A stretch of 52,569 nucleotides of DNA from Gammaproteobacteria bacterium (GCA_028871705.1 JAGWMP010000003.1:1-52569); one strand, 5' to 3'. Positions 26,403 through 33,577 are shown, numbered from the stretch's first letter. A program made the numbers and translations. The notes: generated by a model not told the origin, from the sequence alone.

Positions 26403-27602
26403 ATGACCGTGAGCTCCAGGAGATCGGTTCCCCGGCCGCCGCCAGGCGGCTTGCTGGTGCTGTTTCCGGCCGGCGGCGGGGACGGCCTGGCCCGGCGCCT
26501 GCGCCACGCCACGGGGGTCCGCCTCAGCCGGTCGGAGCACGGCGGGGCGGGCGAGAAGCACGGCGCCATCGGACAGGGGGTCTTCTTCGGCCGTCTCGAC
26601 GCCGCGCTCGTCTATGCAGATGCCGACCAGCGGCGTGCGCTCGGCCGATTTGCCGGGGCGAACGGCCTTCTGATCGAGCGCGAGCGCCACCTGCGCCCAG
26701 CCGTCATCCGCGACGCGTTCCATGCGAGCCTGCGCCTCCCGCTGCGCGACACGCGCTCGGGCACCTGGGGATTGCGGGCGAGCGGCGTCCTCGATTCCTC
26801 CTACAGCGGCCGCGGAGTCCGTCTCGCGATCCTCGATACCGGGCTCGACCTCGAGCACCCGGATTTCTCGCACCGCGCGGTGCGCTCGCGCTCGTTCGTG
26901 ACGGGGCTGCCGGTGCACGACCGCAACGGTCATGGCACCTGCTGCGCCGGCATCGCGGTGGGACCCGCGCGTCCCCGGCGCGCTGCACGCTACGGCGTCG
27001 CTCCCGAGGCCGAGCTCTACGTCGCCAAGGTTCTCGACGACGATGCCAACGGGACTGACGGCAACGTGCTCGCGGGCATCGATTGGGCCGTGCGCAAAGG
27101 CTGCGCGGTGATCTCCATCTCGCTCGGTACTCCGGCGGGCGAGGGCGGCGGCTACTCGCGGGTCTTCGAGCGCATCGCCGCGCGGGCGCTGGCGGCGGGA
27201 AGTCTGCTGGTCGCGCCCGCCGGCAACGCCAGCCAGCGGCCCGACAGCATCGCCCCGGTCGATCACCCGGCGAACTGCCCGTCGGTGCTCGGCGTCGGCG
27301 CGCTGAATCAGAGTCTCGCGCTTGCCTCGTTCTCGAATGGCGGACCTGATCCGCGCGCCGGCGGCATGGACCTGGCAGCTGCGGGCACCGCGGTCCTGTC
27401 GGCGGCGCCGCGGCCCACGCTCTACCAGGTCGCGAGCGGCACCAGCATCGCGGCGCCTTTGGTCGCTGGCGTCGCGGCGCTCATCGCCGAGGCGAGCCCG
27501 GGCGCCCGTGGCGCGACGCTGCGGGCGCTGCTCCTGAAAAACGCCCGTCCGTTGCCGGCGCGGGCGCGCAGCGCGCGCGTGCGGATGGTGTGCGCGCCAT
27601 GA
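26403..27602 (+). CDS. S8 (subtilisin-like) serine peptidase
   Basis: Triad motifs AILDTGLDLEHPD, NGHGTCCAGI, SGTSIAAPLVAG; no obvious signal peptide. Confidence 0.9.
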   Translation: MTVSSRRSVPRPPPGGLLVLFPAGGGDGLARRLRHATGVRLSRSEHGGAGEKHGAIGQGVFFGRLDAALVYADADQRRALGRFAGANGLLIERERHLRPAVIRDAFHASLRLPLRDTRSGTWGLRASGVLDSSYSGRGVRLAILDTGLDLEHPDFSHRAVRSRSFVTGLPVHDRNGHGTCCAGIAVGPARPRRAARYGVAPEAELYVAKVLDDDANGTDGNVLAGIDWAVRKGCAVISISLGTPAGEGGGYSRVFERIAARALAAGSLLVAPAGNASQRPDSIAPVDHPANCPSVLGVGALNQSLALASFSNGGPDPRAGGMDLAAAGTAVLSAAPRPTLYQVASGTSIAAPLVAGVAALIAEASPGARGATLRALLLKNARPLPARARSARVRMVCAP

Positions 27603-27904
27603 GTGGCTACGAGCACGAGCGGGTCAACGTGGCGGTCGCGGTGTCCGACGACTCACGCGACAGCCTGCGGGAGGTCGCCGCGGCCTGCCGGGCGCTCGGC
27701 TTCGAGCAGACCTCCACGTTGAGCGATATCGGCGTATTGACCGGCTCGGCGCACGTCGCCGCGTTGCCGGTACTGCGCGAAGTCCCGGGCGTGATGGCCG
27801 TCGAGGTGGAACGGCCCTTCCGGATCCAGGCGTGGCGCGGCGCCGCCGCGCGCTCCGCGCAGGTTACTGGTGTGGCCCCGAGGCTGCGGCGGGCATCAGC
27901 GTGA
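27599..27904 (+). CDS. Small protein resembling a stand-alone subtilase propeptide / I9 inhibitor-like domain
   Basis: ATGA overlap with S8 gene; VNVAVAVSDDSRDSLREVAAACRALGFEQTSTLSDIGVLTGSAHVAALPVLREVPGVMAVEVERPFRIQ has a propeptide-like pattern. Confidence 0.55.
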   Translation: MSGYEHERVNVAVAVSDDSRDSLREVAAACRALGFEQTSTLSDIGVLTGSAHVAALPVLREVPGVMAVEVERPFRIQAWRGAAARSAQVTGVAPRLRRASA

Positions 27905-28553
27905 AGGGAAACTCGCGCGGGGAAGTTGCCTGGCCTTCCTCGGCTTCGATGCGCAGCCGGTAGTCTCCCGGGCTGAGCCGCGCCGCGTCCGCGTAGGCGT
28001 GCAGGTAATGGTCAGGCATGACTGTGCCCTCGACCGCACCGAGTGTCTGCACGGTCGTCCCCCGAATTCGCAGCAGCGTGATGCGCTGCGCGCCCGTGGC
28101 GGAGGTCTCGGGCGCGATGCGCAGCTCGATGCGGCCCCCGGTGGGCAGCTCGAGCCGCGGGACCTGCGCGCCGCGGGTCGAGATGAACGTCCACTGCGCC
28201 GCGGGCGAGCCGTGACCGGCGGCGATGCGATCGGGCGATGCGCTCAGCAGCGAGTCCGCGTCTTTCAGTTCCCACCAGGCGCCCACGCATACCGCGGCGA
28301 CGATCGCCGCCGCGGCGAGCGGCAGCCAGCGCGCCAGGCGTACCGAGCGCACCAGGCGCGGCGCGTCGGGCGCCGCGAAATATCCCTGCCCCTGGAGCTG
28401 GCGCAGGCCTTCGCGGAGCCGGAGAGAGTGCTCGAGCTCACGGGCGAGCGTCGGGTCGCGCGCCACGCGGTCCTGGAACACGAGCCGTTCGCGCTCGGAC
28501 AATCGTCCGACGAGATAGTCGCGGATCTCGTCGTCGTGGGTGATACCGGTCAT
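27864..28553 (-). CDS. Anti-sigma-factor-like single-TM protein
   Basis: DDEIRDYLVGRLSERERLVFQDRVARDPTLARELE (anti-sigma N-terminal-like), TM WLPLAAAAIVAAVCVGAWW, beta-rich C-terminal domain; directly downstream of sigma gene. Confidence 0.65.
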   Translation of the reverse strand: MTGITHDDEIRDYLVGRLSERERLVFQDRVARDPTLARELEHSLRLREGLRQLQGQGYFAAPDAPRLVRSVRLARWLPLAAAAIVAAVCVGAWWELKDADSLLSASPDRIAAGHGSPAAQWTFISTRGAQVPRLELPTGGRIELRIAPETSATGAQRITLLRIRGTTVQTLGAVEGTVMPDHYLHAYADAARLSPGDYRLRIEAEEGQATSPREFPFTLMPAAASGPHQ

Positions 28554-29191
28554 CGGAAGTACTCCAGTGCCCACAGTGCCGCGACCAGCACCGCGAGGAG
28601 GTCGCCCTTGCCGTAGCCGCTGCGCTCGAGGATTTCCCTGAAGCGGTTGCGCGCGCGGAAGATCACGCGATTGAAGTGCTGTTGCGAGAGCCCCATCTCC
28701 CGGCAGATCTTTCCCTTGTCCTCATCGCCGAGGTAAAAGCGCGCGAGGATGTTCCGGTCGCGTGCCCCCGGCATCTCATCGAGCAGATTGCGCACCGCCA
28801 CGTGCCACTGCGAGCGGCTGATGCGCTCACAGTCGCTGTCCTCGGCGTCGTCGGCGAGCTCATCGAGTCCCTCGGCACTCGAGACGGCGGAACGGTCCTT
28901 GCGTCGATGATTGCGCAGATGATTGAGCGCCACGCGGTAGAGATAGCCGCCGAGGTTCTCCGGGTGAGCGATCGCTCCGGTGCGCAGCTTCTCGAGCGTG
29001 GTGACGGCCGCATCCTGCAGAATGTCGGCCGCGACATCCGGGTCGCGCACGCGCAGCAGGATCAGGGCGCGCAGCCCCGGGAAGTCGCGATAGACTGCCG
29101 CCAGCTGGGAAACCGGGTTTGACACCGGCACGGCGACGTCGGCCTGCGCAGGGAGAATACCGAGATGGGCGGCTTGTCCCTCAACGGCCAT
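28550..29191 (-). CDS. ECF-type sigma-70 family RNA polymerase sigma factor
   Basis: DPDVAADILQDAAVTTLEKL...NLGGYLYRVALNHLRNHRRKD...KICREMGLSQQHFNRVIFRARNRFREIL (sigma-2 and sigma-4-like regions); start may be further in (e.g. about 29131). Confidence 0.85.
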   Translation of the reverse strand: MAVEGQAAHLGILPAQADVAVPVSNPVSQLAAVYRDFPGLRALILLRVRDPDVAADILQDAAVTTLEKLRTGAIAHPENLGGYLYRVALNHLRNHRRKDRSAVSSAEGLDELADDAEDSDCERISRSQWHVAVRNLLDEMPGARDRNILARFYLGDEDKGKICREMGLSQQHFNRVIFRARNRFREILERSGYGKGDLLAVLVAALWALEYFR

Positions 29192-32100
29192 GGGCCAAGT
29201 ATAAGCTGCGGCCGCAGCGCCCGGCAGCAACAGTCGCGGTTTCGCTTAAGTGCCAGTGGGTTGCTTGTTGTTCTCTCCCTCCTCGGGCTGCTGACGCCTG
29301 CGTCAGGAAGGGCATCAGGAGGGGCATTGTGTGCGGGCGCTTTGGCCCACCCGGCCTTCACGGCGGGCTCCCTCGCCACCCGGGGAACGGATGCGGCAAC
29401 CGCGGATTTCGCGCTGGCTGCGGGCCGCACTTACCTTATCGAGGTCACCGAGCGCGACAACGACGCGAACGTCGAGGTACTCGACGCAAGTGGCCGCCTG
29501 ATCGTTCGCGCCGACCACCCCGAGCGCCGCACCGGGACGCGCCGCGCCGTGGTCACGGCGCCCGAGCCGGGGAATGTCACGGTACGGGTGACCGGCAAGG
29601 AGCATGCGAACGCCAGGGGCAGCGCCGCGGTTCGCGTGTTCGAACTCGCCTCGGTCGGGCTCCCCGAGTGTGTGACTGTGCTCAGGAATCTCGCGGCGGC
29701 GGATGCGAGCTACGCTTCAGGGCTCGAGATTTCGAGCGGCCGTGCGACCTCGCCGGCGCAGAGCGCCCGGGATCTGTTTCTGCGCGCGGAAGAATCGTAC
29801 GCGGCGGCTGAGCAGGCGTTGGCCGCCACGGATGATGCGCGGTTGAGAGGCGAGACCGAATTGGCGCTCGCGGCGCTCAACTATCACAACCTGCAGGACT
29901 GGTCGAGGACGGCGGACCTGGCAAAGCAGGCTGCGGCAATTCTGGCGCCGGTCGATGCGTACCGGCAGGCGCGGGCCGAGGCTCTCATGGCGGCGGCCTG
30001 GATGGAGATCGGCTCGGCCGGCTCCGTCGAACAATCGGCGAAAATGCTGGCCGAGGCGCGAGCCGTGCTGCGGCGTGTGAACCGCTTTCACATGCAGCGG
30101 GACGAGCGCTTCGACGCCTCGCTGGCGCTTACGAACATCGGGCTCAGCTACCTGTATCAGGGTCGCTATGCGGACTGCATCGCTGGGTCGGCTGCGGCAA
30201 ACCGACTCTTAACGTCCATTCATGAGACGCTGCGGGCTGCACAAGCGTGGCAGAACCGCTCGCTTTGTCTGTGGGGACTCGGACGTTTGTCAGAGGCGCG
30301 TGACGGGTTCTTGCGTTCTCTCGCCGACATCCCGCCGCAACCGCTGCCCCAGGTTTACCTCGCATCGATCACAAACACCGCGCTGCTCGATTACTCGCTC
30401 GGCAGCTACGATGATTCTCTGCGACTCTATGACCGCGCTCTTGCCTTCGCGCAGCGGACCCAGGACGAGCGCGATAGCGCTTATTGTCTCTACGGGATCG
30501 GCGTGAACTATGCTGCTCTCGGGGATCCCGAGCGCGCACGGGAGTTTCTGATGCGCTCACTCACTATCCGTACGGTGGCGTTCGACGGACGCGGCCGAAT
30601 GGACACCCTGCGTGCCCTTGCGCGGGTGGACGGCGAAGAAGGGAAACTGGAGGAGGCCATTGGTTACGATCAAGAGGCTTTAACTCTCGCCGTGGACCCT
30701 CTGGCTCAGGAGAGCATCCGCGTGCAGCTCGCGACCCACACCGCGTCGGCGGGACATTTCGAAGAGGCGAAGTCACTTCTCGACGAAGTCCTCGAGAAGG
30801 GCCCTCGCGGCGACCCACTCATCCTGGCGGACGCGCGGGTACAGCGCGCGGTTATTTATCGGCGCCTCGGGCGGACGAACGAAGCGCTCGTCGATCTCAG
30901 GATGGCCCTTGGCGGGTTCCACGCCTTGAGCAGCGTATCCCAGGAGTTTGCGGGCCGCCTCGAGCTCGCGCGAACGCTGCGGCAAGCCGGAAATGCGCGT
31001 GAGGCGTTGGTAGCGGTGGATCGCGCGCTCGCTCTGGGCGATGCAGTGCGGGTGCAGAGCGTGAACCCTGACTTTCGTGTGCAGCTGCAGGCACCCCTGC
31101 GCGCCGCCTATGATCTGAAGATCGAGCTCCTGCGGTCCGAGTACGACGCGGCCGTTCTTGGCGGCCGCACAGCGCATGCCGATGCGTTGGCCGCGAAAGC
31201 GTTCGCGGCAGCGGATTCCTCACGAGCACATTCGTTTGCCGATGTCGCCGCGCAGGAGTACTCACCGGCGCTTCGCCGCGAGCTCGCCTCGGAGCTGCAC
31301 CGGCGTGAGAGCCTCTATCGCGAGCTGGCCGAGCGGCGTTTCGCACTGGACTATCTGATCGATCCTTCGCCGAGTCGGAATCCGCGCGCGAAGAAGCTGT
31401 TGAGTGACATTGCCGAGCTCGAGCGGCAGGCGGACACGCTCAACACCGTGATCGCGAGGCGCGCTGCCCACTCTGGCGAACCGGCGGCAGGCGCGCGCCG
31501 GAGCATTCCGGTCATGCCCGCGAACACGGGACTCATCTCTTATTGGCTTGGGGCGGAATCCTCATACGCCTGGGTCGTGCTGCCCGGCGAACTGCACTGG
31601 GTACGTCTGGCTGAGCCGAAAGTGATCGAAAAGCAGGCAACCGCTTTCCACGACTCCCTCACGCACTTCATGGACCAGTCCGTGGAGCAGCGTCTGACGG
31701 CGGGGGCGCGGGTCTCCGAATTCGTGCTGCACCCTCTGGAGTCCTGGCTCTCGGGGGTCAATCAGTGGGTCATCGTGCCGGACGGGGTTCTCGACTACAT
31801 CCCGTTCGCAGCACTCGAAGAATCCTCGAATCCGCAGTCATTCGTCGTTCTGCGGCACGATGTCGCGCTCACTCCCGCCGCCTGGATGCTGGGAGCGACG
31901 GACGACGAGGGGAATGCCGGTTCGAAGCGCGGCCTGTTGCTGGTAGACGACCCGGTGTATGAGGGAGACGATCCGAGGCTGGCGGCCCGGCAGCGGGCGT
32001 CCGCCGCGCCGGCTCCCGGAGCCTCCCCGGACGTCTATGACTATCGACGTCTTCTCTACACTGCACAGGAGGCCGCCGCCATCCGGCGCTTGTTTCCGCC

Positions 32101-32689
32101 CTCCGAAGTCGATGAGCTGGCGGGCCTCGATGCAACTCGAGAGCGTTTTCTTGCGAGTGATCTCTCCCGATACCGCTTCATTCATGTCGCGGCACACGGC
32201 ACGGTCGATACGCGCGTACCGGAGCTCTCGGCACTGGTGCTCGGCTCGTATGACGCAAGTGGTAGGACGGTCGATGGCGCCGTCCGTGTACCGGACCTCG
32301 CGCTACTGCGGCTGCATGCGGATGTAGCGGTCTTCAGTGCCTGCGACACCGCAATGGGCGAAGAAGTGGCGAGCGAGGGGCTGGTCGGTATCGGCTCGAC
32401 GGTACTGGCGCGGGGAGTACGGGCGGTCGTCGGCTCGCTCTGGCCGGTGTCCGATGAGATTGGCGCGCAGCTCATGACAGAGTTCTACCGGCACCTGCTG
32501 CGCGACTCGATGAGCGCACCCGCGGCGCTCGCCGCCGCCATGCGATCGGTCGTGTCTCGAGAGAGAGCCGCGGATCCTGCGCTGTGGGCCGCATTTCAGG
32601 TGTCCGTCGTTGCGCTCGGCCCCGGCCGGCCGAGCCGCAACGGCGGTTTGAAGGTTTCAACCAAGTCTGCCGAAGGGGGCACATTGTGA
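29165..32689 (+). CDS. TPR-CHAT domain protein (caspase-HetF-like peptidase), probably exported
   Basis: Signal-peptide-like LLVVLSLLGLLTPASGRA, PPC-like beta domain, TPR region, CHAT domain with HVAAHG and FSACDTAMG catalytic His/Cys motifs; real start probably downstream of 29165. Confidence 0.88.
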   Translation: MGGLSLNGHGPSISCGRSARQQQSRFRLSASGLLVVLSLLGLLTPASGRASGGALCAGALAHPAFTAGSLATRGTDAATADFALAAGRTYLIEVTERDNDANVEVLDASGRLIVRADHPERRTGTRRAVVTAPEPGNVTVRVTGKEHANARGSAAVRVFELASVGLPECVTVLRNLAAADASYASGLEISSGRATSPAQSARDLFLRAEESYAAAEQALAATDDARLRGETELALAALNYHNLQDWSRTADLAKQAAAILAPVDAYRQARAEALMAAAWMEIGSAGSVEQSAKMLAEARAVLRRVNRFHMQRDERFDASLALTNIGLSYLYQGRYADCIAGSAAANRLLTSIHETLRAAQAWQNRSLCLWGLGRLSEARDGFLRSLADIPPQPLPQVYLASITNTALLDYSLGSYDDSLRLYDRALAFAQRTQDERDSAYCLYGIGVNYAALGDPERAREFLMRSLTIRTVAFDGRGRMDTLRALARVDGEEGKLEEAIGYDQEALTLAVDPLAQESIRVQLATHTASAGHFEEAKSLLDEVLEKGPRGDPLILADARVQRAVIYRRLGRTNEALVDLRMALGGFHALSSVSQEFAGRLELARTLRQAGNAREALVAVDRALALGDAVRVQSVNPDFRVQLQAPLRAAYDLKIELLRSEYDAAVLGGRTAHADALAAKAFAAADSSRAHSFADVAAQEYSPALRRELASELHRRESLYRELAERRFALDYLIDPSPSRNPRAKKLLSDIAELERQADTLNTVIARRAAHSGEPAAGARRSIPVMPANTGLISYWLGAESSYAWVVLPGELHWVRLAEPKVIEKQATAFHDSLTHFMDQSVEQRLTAGARVSEFVLHPLESWLSGVNQWVIVPDGVLDYIPFAALEESSNPQSFVVLRHDVALTPAAWMLGATDDEGNAGSKRGLLLVDDPVYEGDDPRLAARQRASAAPAPGASPDVYDYRRLLYTAQEAAAIRRLFPPSEVDELAGLDATRERFLASDLSRYRFIHVAAHGTVDTRVPELSALVLGSYDASGRTVDGAVRVPDLALLRLHADVAVFSACDTAMGEEVASEGLVGIGSTVLARGVRAVVGSLWPVSDEIGAQLMTEFYRHLLRDSMSAPAALAAAMRSVVSRERAADPALWAAFQVSVVALGPGRPSRNGGLKVSTKSAEGGTL

Positions 32690-33216
32690 AGCGCTGGACG
32701 AATACGAGAGTGACGCTCAACGACAGCTGGGGGCCCGGAGCCGCCCACTCGCTCAGGACGCCCGTGGGACGTCAACCTGAGTTCGCGCTGACTCCGCGTT
32801 ATCTGCGCGGGCCAGACGGCACTCCGCAGCTCGCGCACTTCGCGATCGACTTTCCGTCCGGCTACCTTGCCGACGGCTGGCAGGGAGTAAATTTCATTCC
32901 CCTAGGCTCGCGGGAAGTGAAGGGGATCAAAGGCCTGCCGCCCTGGAAGGCGGCTCACCGGAACCGTTATAAGAAAGCGATTGAAGCTGCGGCCGAGAGC
33001 CTCTCCGACCCACGGACCCGGCGGCTCGAGGCGGTCATCCCCTATGTCGGCAGCCGGGGAAGCGTGGGCTATAACAAGGTCCGACTCTTCTATGTCTCTG
33101 GCGCGGTCAGAGGGCAGGACCGCCATCTGGTCATCGTCAAGGTCGCGACTCACGTCGGAATCAAGGGGGAGGTGCAGGGCCGCCAGGATGGAAGCGGTCA
33201 CGGGCCGCCTCACTGA
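32686..33216 (+). CDS. Hypothetical protein (176 aa) coupled to the CHAT gene
   Basis: GTG at 32686 overlaps CHAT stop (GTGA); no domain recognised. Confidence 0.65.
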   Translation: MKRWTNTRVTLNDSWGPGAAHSLRTPVGRQPEFALTPRYLRGPDGTPQLAHFAIDFPSGYLADGWQGVNFIPLGSREVKGIKGLPPWKAAHRNRYKKAIEAAAESLSDPRTRRLEAVIPYVGSRGSVGYNKVRLFYVSGAVRGQDRHLVIVKVATHVGIKGEVQGRQDGSGHGPPH

Positions 33217-33230
33217 CGCCCTGGCGGCTG

Positions 33231-33254
33231 GCGCACGGCGCCGACGCCGTGCGC
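33231..33254. terminator. Hairpin between convergent genes (10-bp arms GCGCACGGCG/CGCCGTGCGC, CCGA loop)
   Basis: Perfect inverted repeat at the convergent junction, touching the stop codon of the minus-strand gene. Confidence 0.5.
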
Positions 33255-33577
33255 TAGACCGTCCGCAGCTCGGCGCGGCTCACCCGCTCGCAGGTCTCGG
33301 CTCTGATGGCGCTCGCGATCGAGATGCCGGCCCTGAGCACGAACGGGCCCGGCAGGCGGCTGCAGGAGGCGCACAGCGGCACGATGCCTTCGCCCATCCC
33401 GCCCTGGTGCACGACGTGCCCACCGACACTCGGGGCGTTGGAGCAGCCGGCGACGGAGCACCGGGGCGGCCAGAACTGCCCGGAAAAGGTCATCCAGTGC
33501 TGTATCCAGGACCCGCACACGCAGGGCCTGAGACTCGTGCCGTCCTTGATCGTCCAGCCGTTCGCCGCAATGCTCAT
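33254..33577 (-). CDS. Small Cys-rich protein with HNH/treble-clef-like zinc site, function unknown
   Basis: CVCGSW, CSVAGCSNAPSVGGHVVHQ...GIVPLCASCSR spacing. Confidence 0.55.
   Translation of the reverse strand: MSIAANGWTIKDGTSLRPCVCGSWIQHWMTFSGQFWPPRCSVAGCSNAPSVGGHVVHQGGMGEGIVPLCASCSRLPGPFVLRAGISIASAIRAETCERVSRAELRTV

What the first reader, a model, noticed from the sequence alone, without database searches (positions are those of the whole stretch)
26403..33577. Candidate new protease-signalling island: S8 peptidase plus propeptide-like partner, sigma/anti-sigma pair, exported TPR-CHAT protein and unknown partners
Within 7.2 kb there are two different peptidase types (S8 and caspase-like CHAT). 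They flank an ECF-type sigma factor and a membrane anti-sigma-like protein, plus two uncharacterised small proteins (32686-33216 and 33254-33577). The sequence shows start/stop overlaps for S8/I9-like (ATGA), anti-sigma/sigma, and CHAT/unknown (GTGA). Known parallels are regulated proteolysis of anti-sigma factors and the TPR-CHAT/Csx30/RpoE arrangement of type III-E Craspase. No Cas gene is present here, so a CRISPR-independent CHAT-sigma circuit is the hypothesis.
Basis: partly seen in the sequence, partly recalled or inferred. Interest (0 to 1): 0.78.

Follow-up and report, generated by a model that had tools for sequence, protein, structure and literature searches.

The report
CRISPR-free sigma-factor module with caspase-like protease
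A bacterium carries a conserved gene set pairing a stress sigma factor and its membrane inhibitor with an exported caspase-like protease and small proteins that share a unique tail sequence, which looks like a CRISPR-independent version of protease-controlled gene switching.

Summary
The observation largely holds. The window encodes an S8 peptidase, an I9-fold partner, a membrane anti-sigma factor, an ECF sigma factor, an exported TPR-CHAT protease and a 176-aa protein. The ORF at 33254-33577 is dropped: minus strand, no homologue in the fetched loci. The island is a conserved module. Of 44 homologous sigma loci in the order (at least five families), 33 have TPR-CHAT within about 3 kb and 43 have the anti-sigma gene adjacent; the other ends at a contig edge. 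No Cas hit or CRISPR array was seen. New here: the 176-aa protein ends in QDGSGHGPPH. This tail is kept in all nine homologues. In sister modules lacking that protein, the motif follows the signal peptide of an unrelated small secreted protein, or ends a Lys-rich one. Its codon pattern occurs in 11 of 396 genomes of the order, once each: ten inside the module, one in the 176-aa gene on a broken contig. It was absent from 169 other genomes of the phylum. Likeliest mechanism: periplasmic TPR-CHAT controls sigma release through the anti-sigma ectodomain, with the tagged protein as ligand or substrate. Conservation is shown; every mechanistic step is inference.

The parts
26403..27602 (+). S8 (subtilase) peptidase without a signal peptide; in the window's clade it occurs only in genomes that also carry the 176-aa gene
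   Evidence: Pfam 1.9e-48; D-H-N-S intact; homologues in L002, L006, L011, L076, L079
27599..27904 (+). Stand-alone I9-like (subtilisin propeptide/inhibitor fold) protein, ATGA-overlapped with the S8 gene; also present in modules without a nearby S8
   Evidence: AlphaFold pLDDT 93, best match a subtilisin propeptide; 14 copies in 13 loci
27864..28553 (-). Membrane anti-sigma factor: non-zinc class I anti-sigma domain, one TM segment, about 100-aa predicted periplasmic beta-rich part
   Evidence: Aligned family members carry Hx3Cx2C and 5 of 25 match zf-HC2; profile hits chain 3hug_B; hydrophobic 18-mer in 41 of 45
28550..29191 (-). ECF-type sigma factor
   Evidence: TIGR02989 4e-14, TIGR02937 1e-10; homologues up to 69% identical
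29198..29205 (-). Conserved CTTATACT (-10-like TATACT) six bases before the sigma ATG, implying a leaderless or near-leaderless transcript
   Evidence: Conserved in most clade loci; one match in the window, 0.06 expected
29165..32689 (+). Exported TPR-CHAT (caspase-like) cysteine peptidase, 1174 aa; start codon uncertain
   Evidence: CHAT 3.9e-50, TPR repeats; His and Cys conserved in aligned homologues; signal peptide or lipobox in most
32686..33216 (+). 176-aa protein of unknown fold with a disordered tail; GTGA overlap with the CHAT stop
   Evidence: Nine-member family; tail pLDDT about 25; no significant PDB match; dN much lower than dS
33184..33213 (+). C-terminal tag QDGSGHGPPH, shared with unrelated proteins of sister modules

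Best explanation
This is a conserved, CRISPR-free signal module in which an exported TPR-CHAT protease controls an ECF sigma factor through its membrane anti-sigma factor. Shown by sequence: the gene set is conserved, its members co-diverge, active sites are intact, CHAT carries an export signal, the anti-sigma factor has one TM segment, and a short tag is shared by the module's alternative partner proteins. Inferred: the TPR region senses an envelope signal or binds the partner's exposed tag, CHAT becomes active and cuts the anti-sigma ectodomain; intramembrane and cytoplasmic proteolysis then frees sigma, which raises expression of the module and other genes. In the window's variant a cytoplasmic S8 peptidase with its I9-like inhibitor and the tagged 176-aa protein may form a second arm, perhaps with the 176-aa protein as the protease's client.
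For: TPR-CHAT near 33 of 44 homologous sigma loci in the order, against one or two CHAT genes in most of these genomes. Co-divergence: SIG-TPRN rho 0.75, SIG-ASF 0.71, TPRN-U176 0.89. CHAT catalytic dyad conserved; signal peptide or lipobox on most, placing CHAT on the side of the anti-sigma ectodomain. Anti-sigma identity by Hx3Cx2C relatives (motif definition in PMC7406223). Tag specificity: hits in 11 of 396 genomes, ten in the module and one in the 176-aa gene on a broken contig, against one hit for the reversed-pattern control; none in 169 other genomes. Precedent: Csx29 TPR-CHAT cleaves Csx30, an inhibitor of CASP-sigma (PMC10028731).
Against: No cleavage, binding or expression data exist. 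The 176-aa protein lacks a signal peptide although CHAT is exported, so the two may never meet. Eleven of the 44 sigma loci lack a nearby CHAT, some of them on short contigs. Promoter elements shared between the sigma gene and CHAT, S8 or I9 were not found.
Confidence: 0.42

Rival explanations
1. CHAT, S8 and the tagged proteins are outputs: sigma senses envelope stress through its anti-sigma factor by ordinary means and switches on exported proteases and their substrates as effectors. CHAT does not act on the anti-sigma factor.
For: CHAT is divergent from sigma or in its operon, as regulon genes often are. Sigma/anti-sigma pairs without nearby CHAT exist (L053, L054, L060, L063). The gene after CHAT varies widely between lineages, as effector cargo would.
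Against: After the anti-sigma gene, TPR-CHAT is the most constant neighbour and diverges in step with sigma; the studied TPR-CHAT/sigma set works upstream of sigma (PMC10028731).
Confidence: 0.33
2. The tagged tail is the substrate: CHAT or a companion protease cuts QDGxGHGPP-bearing proteins to release a product or peptide, and sigma only sets expression levels.
For: The motif is at an exposed end each time: the C-terminus of the 176-aa and Lys-rich proteins, and the predicted mature N-terminus of the secreted protein. It appears unique to the module.
Against: A cut inside a ten-residue tail would release little; conservation of the motif alone does not distinguish binding from cleavage.
Confidence: 0.15
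3. In the window's variant the S8/I9/176-aa set is a separate cytoplasmic unit that merely shares the locus: I9 restrains S8, and the 176-aa protein is its client.
For: All six S8-positive clade genomes carry the 176-aa gene, and seven other clade modules (L072, L073, L075, L077, L078, L080, L082) have neither; S8 has no signal peptide; ATGA coupling of S8 and I9.
Against: I9 persists in seven modules without a nearby S8, the tag persists without the 176-aa protein, and L012 has the 176-aa gene without a nearby S8.
Confidence: 0.07
4. Chance neighbourhood without shared function.
For: Flanking genes differ between loci and many congeners lack the module.
Against: Conserved synteny across families, co-divergence, overlapping stop/start codons and a module-specific tag.
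Confidence: 0.02

Closest known systems
Craspase / CASP system (Csx29 TPR-CHAT, Csx30, CASP-sigma) of type III-E CRISPR (PMC10028731)
   Same: TPR-CHAT protease, an ECF-type sigma factor and a sigma inhibitor encoded together; control of sigma by proteolysis is the working model
   Different: No Cas7-11 or CRISPR found here; CHAT is exported; the inhibitor is a membrane class I anti-sigma factor, not Csx30; P0005 matches no Csx29 chain by sequence
RseA/DegS and RsiW-type regulated proteolysis of anti-sigma factors (own knowledge; summarised in PMC10028731)
   Same: Membrane anti-sigma factor with an ectodomain, ECF sigma, envelope-side protease as the proposed first cutter
   Different: The candidate first protease is a caspase-like CHAT cysteine peptidase encoded beside the sigma gene; no cleavage shown
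EACC2-caspase neighbourhoods with ECF sigma and a TPR protein (DUF1822) (PMC8195603)
   Same: Caspase-superfamily peptidase, ECF sigma factor and TPR protein in one neighbourhood, function predicted only
   Different: There the peptidase is a caspase domain joined to EACC2 with variable C-termini; here it is one exported TPR-CHAT polypeptide with an anti-sigma factor, S8/I9 and tagged partners
Subtilisin with I9 propeptide-like inhibitor
   Same: I9 fold encoded next to an S8 peptidase
   Different: The I9-like protein is a separate gene and persists in modules without a nearby S8

Membership tests
CHAT (caspase-like) peptidase | CHAT domain with catalytic His and Cys | tested here: met
   PF12770 3.9e-50; His and Cys conserved in the aligned homologues; activity not tested
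Class I anti-sigma factor (ASDI) | N-terminal anti-sigma domain, Hx3Cx2C or its non-zinc version, encoded with its ECF sigma | tested here: met
   Window protein lacks the motif and has no Pfam hit of its own, but aligns with members that carry it and match zf-HC2; profile hits 3hug_B
ECF sigma factor | Sigma regions 2 and 4 in a short protein | tested here: met
   NCBIfam ECF-type models span both regions, below their own cut-offs; Pfam Sigma70_r2 21.9 bits against a cut-off of 24
Type III-E CRISPR Craspase/CASP | Cas7-11 effector and CRISPR array | tested here: not met
   No Cas hit among the seven island proteins or the flanking proteins scanned, no spaced repeat array in window 15000-45000; the whole genome was not searched for Cas7-11
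Type III-E CRISPR Craspase/CASP | TPR-CHAT cleaves the sigma inhibitor | not testable with these tools
   Needs biochemistry
I9 inhibitor/propeptide | Ferredoxin-like fold matching subtilisin propeptides | tested here: met
   Foldseek probability 1.00, TM 0.69-0.76, but E 7e-3 and other ferredoxin-like folds also match
I9 inhibitor/propeptide | Inhibits or chaperones an S8 peptidase | not testable with these tools
   No assay
Known anti-phage defence system | Match to curated defence families or a defence-island setting | tested here: inconclusive
   PADLOC gave only generic subtilase, IetS, BovA and TPR matches; scanned neighbours are metabolic

The most novel reading that the evidence does not exclude
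The QDGxG(H/Q)GPP peptide is a dedicated recognition tag for a periplasmic TPR-CHAT receptor-protease: unrelated proteins (a 176-aa beta-rich protein, a Lys-rich protein, a small secreted protein) are exchanged in the same module and keep only this tail, which switches CHAT and thereby an ECF sigma factor. That would be a CRISPR-independent, tag-gated caspase-like signalling pathway.
Probability: 0.25. Interest if true: 0.8.

Novelty: new variant of a known kind. Interest (0 to 1): 0.6.

Why it matters
TPR-CHAT control of a sigma factor is known experimentally from type III-E CRISPR. A conserved CRISPR-free counterpart with an exported protease would suggest that the protease/sigma-inhibitor circuit exists apart from CRISPR. 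The exchangeable proteins that keep only a short tag give a specific handle (tail deletions and swaps) for finding what exported CHAT proteases recognise.

Tried and rejected
33254-33577 as a partner: minus strand, and its profile matched no other locus. Fold of the 176-aa protein: no PDB match (best E 0.08) on a moderate model (pLDDT 66). More proteins with the C-terminal tag in 18 clade genomes: only four hits, all the 176-aa gene (an earlier pattern was one base out of frame and is disregarded). A shared promoter for sigma, CHAT, S8, I9 and secreted genes: not found; the TATACT element is almost confined to the sigma gene. CRISPR repeats: none. Sequence match of P0005 to Csx29 structures: none, only generic TPR proteins. 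Literature: no paper found describing CHAT with ECF sigma, anti-sigma and S8 outside CRISPR, but only open-access text was searchable.

Full report
WHAT IS THERE. The window lies in a 3.14-Mb MAG (84% complete) whose close relatives are Steroidobacteraceae MAGs. Six genes form the island: S8 peptidase (26403-27602, +), I9-like protein (27599-27904, +, ATGA overlap), membrane anti-sigma factor (27864-28553, -), ECF sigma factor (28550-29191, -, ATGA overlap), exported TPR-CHAT (29165-32689, +) and a 176-aa protein (32686-33216, +, GTGA overlap). The I9-like and anti-sigma genes converge and overlap by 41 bases. The ORF at 33254-33577 is on the minus strand, and its profile matched no other locus. 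Flanking genes are metabolic or regulatory: an FMN oxidoreductase, DUF1614, an AraC-type regulator, MTTB and a DAO/GCV_T protein.

IDENTITY OF THE PARTS. S8 has an intact D-H-N-S set and no signal peptide. The I9-like protein folds with pLDDT 93 and best matches a subtilisin propeptide (probability 1.00, TM 0.69, E 7e-3), although other ferredoxin-like folds follow closely. The window's anti-sigma protein has no Pfam hit of its own, but aligned relatives carry Hx3Cx2C, 5 of 25 match zf-HC2, and the family profile hits chain 3hug_B, which I recall as the RslA anti-sigma factor. Mixed zinc and non-zinc members within one anti-sigma group are documented (PMC7406223). CHAT keeps its His/Cys dyad, and most homologues have a signal peptide or lipobox (judged by hydrophobicity, not by a dedicated predictor). 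The 176-aa family has no PDB match; its model is moderate (pLDDT 66) with a disordered tail. It is a real gene: pN 0.15-0.30 against pS 0.46-0.79 in pairwise comparisons.

CONSERVATION. A sigma search over 396 genomes of the order matched 48 genomes. I fetched neighbourhoods and searched them with iterated profiles. Of 44 sigma loci from the order, 43 have the anti-sigma gene adjacent and the 44th ends at a contig edge; 33 have TPR-CHAT within about 3 kb, gene edge to gene edge (two of them cut by contig ends); 13 have an S8 nearby. These genomes carry mostly one or two CHAT genes, so by my estimate chance co-location is about 1% or less per genome. Gene order varies (divergent; CHAT-S8-sigma-anti-sigma; sigma-anti-sigma-CHAT), and one genome of another order, G291, has sigma, anti-sigma, a lipoxygenase-like gene and exported TPR-CHAT. 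Pairwise distances of the proteins correlate (SIG-ASF 0.71, SIG-TPRN 0.75, TPRN-U176 0.89; permutation p 0.002), although shared species history contributes. Within the genus the module is patchy: many congeners lack it.

THE TAG. All nine 176-aa homologues end in QxGxGxGPP followed by one residue (L003 has one extra residue inside it), including one only 31% identical. The motif QDGxG(H/Q)GPP also follows the signal peptide of an unrelated small secreted protein in six modules that lack the 176-aa gene, and a DDGGGQGPPH version ends a Lys-rich protein directly after CHAT in another. Across 396 genomes the 26-base coding pattern occurs in 11 genomes, once each: ten in the module and one in the 176-aa gene on a separate contig of a genome whose module is broken across contigs. 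The reversed control pattern matched once. In 169 other genomes of the phylum it is absent. Synonymous sites in the motif vary while most residues do not. In 18 clade genomes no other protein carries the C-terminal form. Limits: the searches sample the group and use a strict pattern, so tagged proteins with variant tails would be missed; the motif was chosen from the same loci, and the 396-genome set contains the discovery genomes, so the clean result is the absence elsewhere, not the presence in the module.

OTHER MODULES. Outside the window's clade the gene after CHAT is often another small protein without evident similarity, often exported, frequently with a Gly/His-rich tail. In a post-hoc set of 13 such proteins the last 15 residues hold 4.2 Gly+His on average against 1.6 in 500 background genes. 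That comparison was made after the pattern was noticed, on hand-picked members, and is a lead, not a test.

MECHANISM. CHAT and the anti-sigma ectodomain are predicted to share a compartment; S8 is not. With the Csx29/Csx30/CASP-sigma precedent (PMC10028731) this favours CHAT acting upstream of sigma, but the output model is nearly as plausible. The sigma gene has a conserved TATACT six bases before its ATG, which suggests leaderless transcription; whether that promoter is self-controlled is unknown.

STATUS OF CLAIMS. Shown: gene content, conservation, intact active-site residues, export-signal-like N-termini, tag distribution in the genomes searched. Inferred: signal, cleavage, binding, regulon. 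I searched only part of GTDB and only open-access literature, so 'not described before' is provisional.

Noticed in passing
window 29191-29205 and clade loci such as L002, L073, L075, L076, L077, L078, L079: The sigma gene has a conserved TATACT about six bases before its ATG, implying a leaderless or near-leaderless mRNA.
   Followed up: partly
L072, L073, L075, L077, L078, L080: Modules without S8 and the 176-aa gene carry a small secreted protein with QDGxG(H/Q)GPP at its predicted mature N-terminus, near an I9-like gene; L073, L077 and L080 also have a 119-aa protein after CHAT (no Pfam hit for the L073 copy).
   Followed up: partly
L082:13855-14034: A short Lys-rich protein ending DDGGGQGPPH sits directly after CHAT.
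   Followed up: partly
L058, L061, L062, L065, L069, L071, L088, L089: The gene after CHAT is a small variable protein, often exported, frequently with a Gly/His-rich C-terminal tail (post-hoc comparison).
   Followed up: partly
L126 (G000:C81:61-669): A second anti-sigma homologue of this family lies at a contig start in the window genome, without a CHAT on that contig.
   Followed up: no
L133: A genome of another order has sigma, anti-sigma, a lipoxygenase-like protein, a 190-aa protein without Pfam hit, and exported TPR-CHAT.
   Followed up: partly
L128, L129, L141: More distant anti-sigma loci of the class have an S8 peptidase nearby but no CHAT detected.
   Followed up: no
L063:11060-11797: The S8 homologue beside this sigma/anti-sigma pair appears to have lost catalytic residues (alignment).
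   Followed up: no
window 33254-33577 (-): Cys-rich ORF (CVCG, CSVAGC, CASC) that resembles a zinc-binding protein; no significant family hit and no homologue in the fetched loci.
   Followed up: partly
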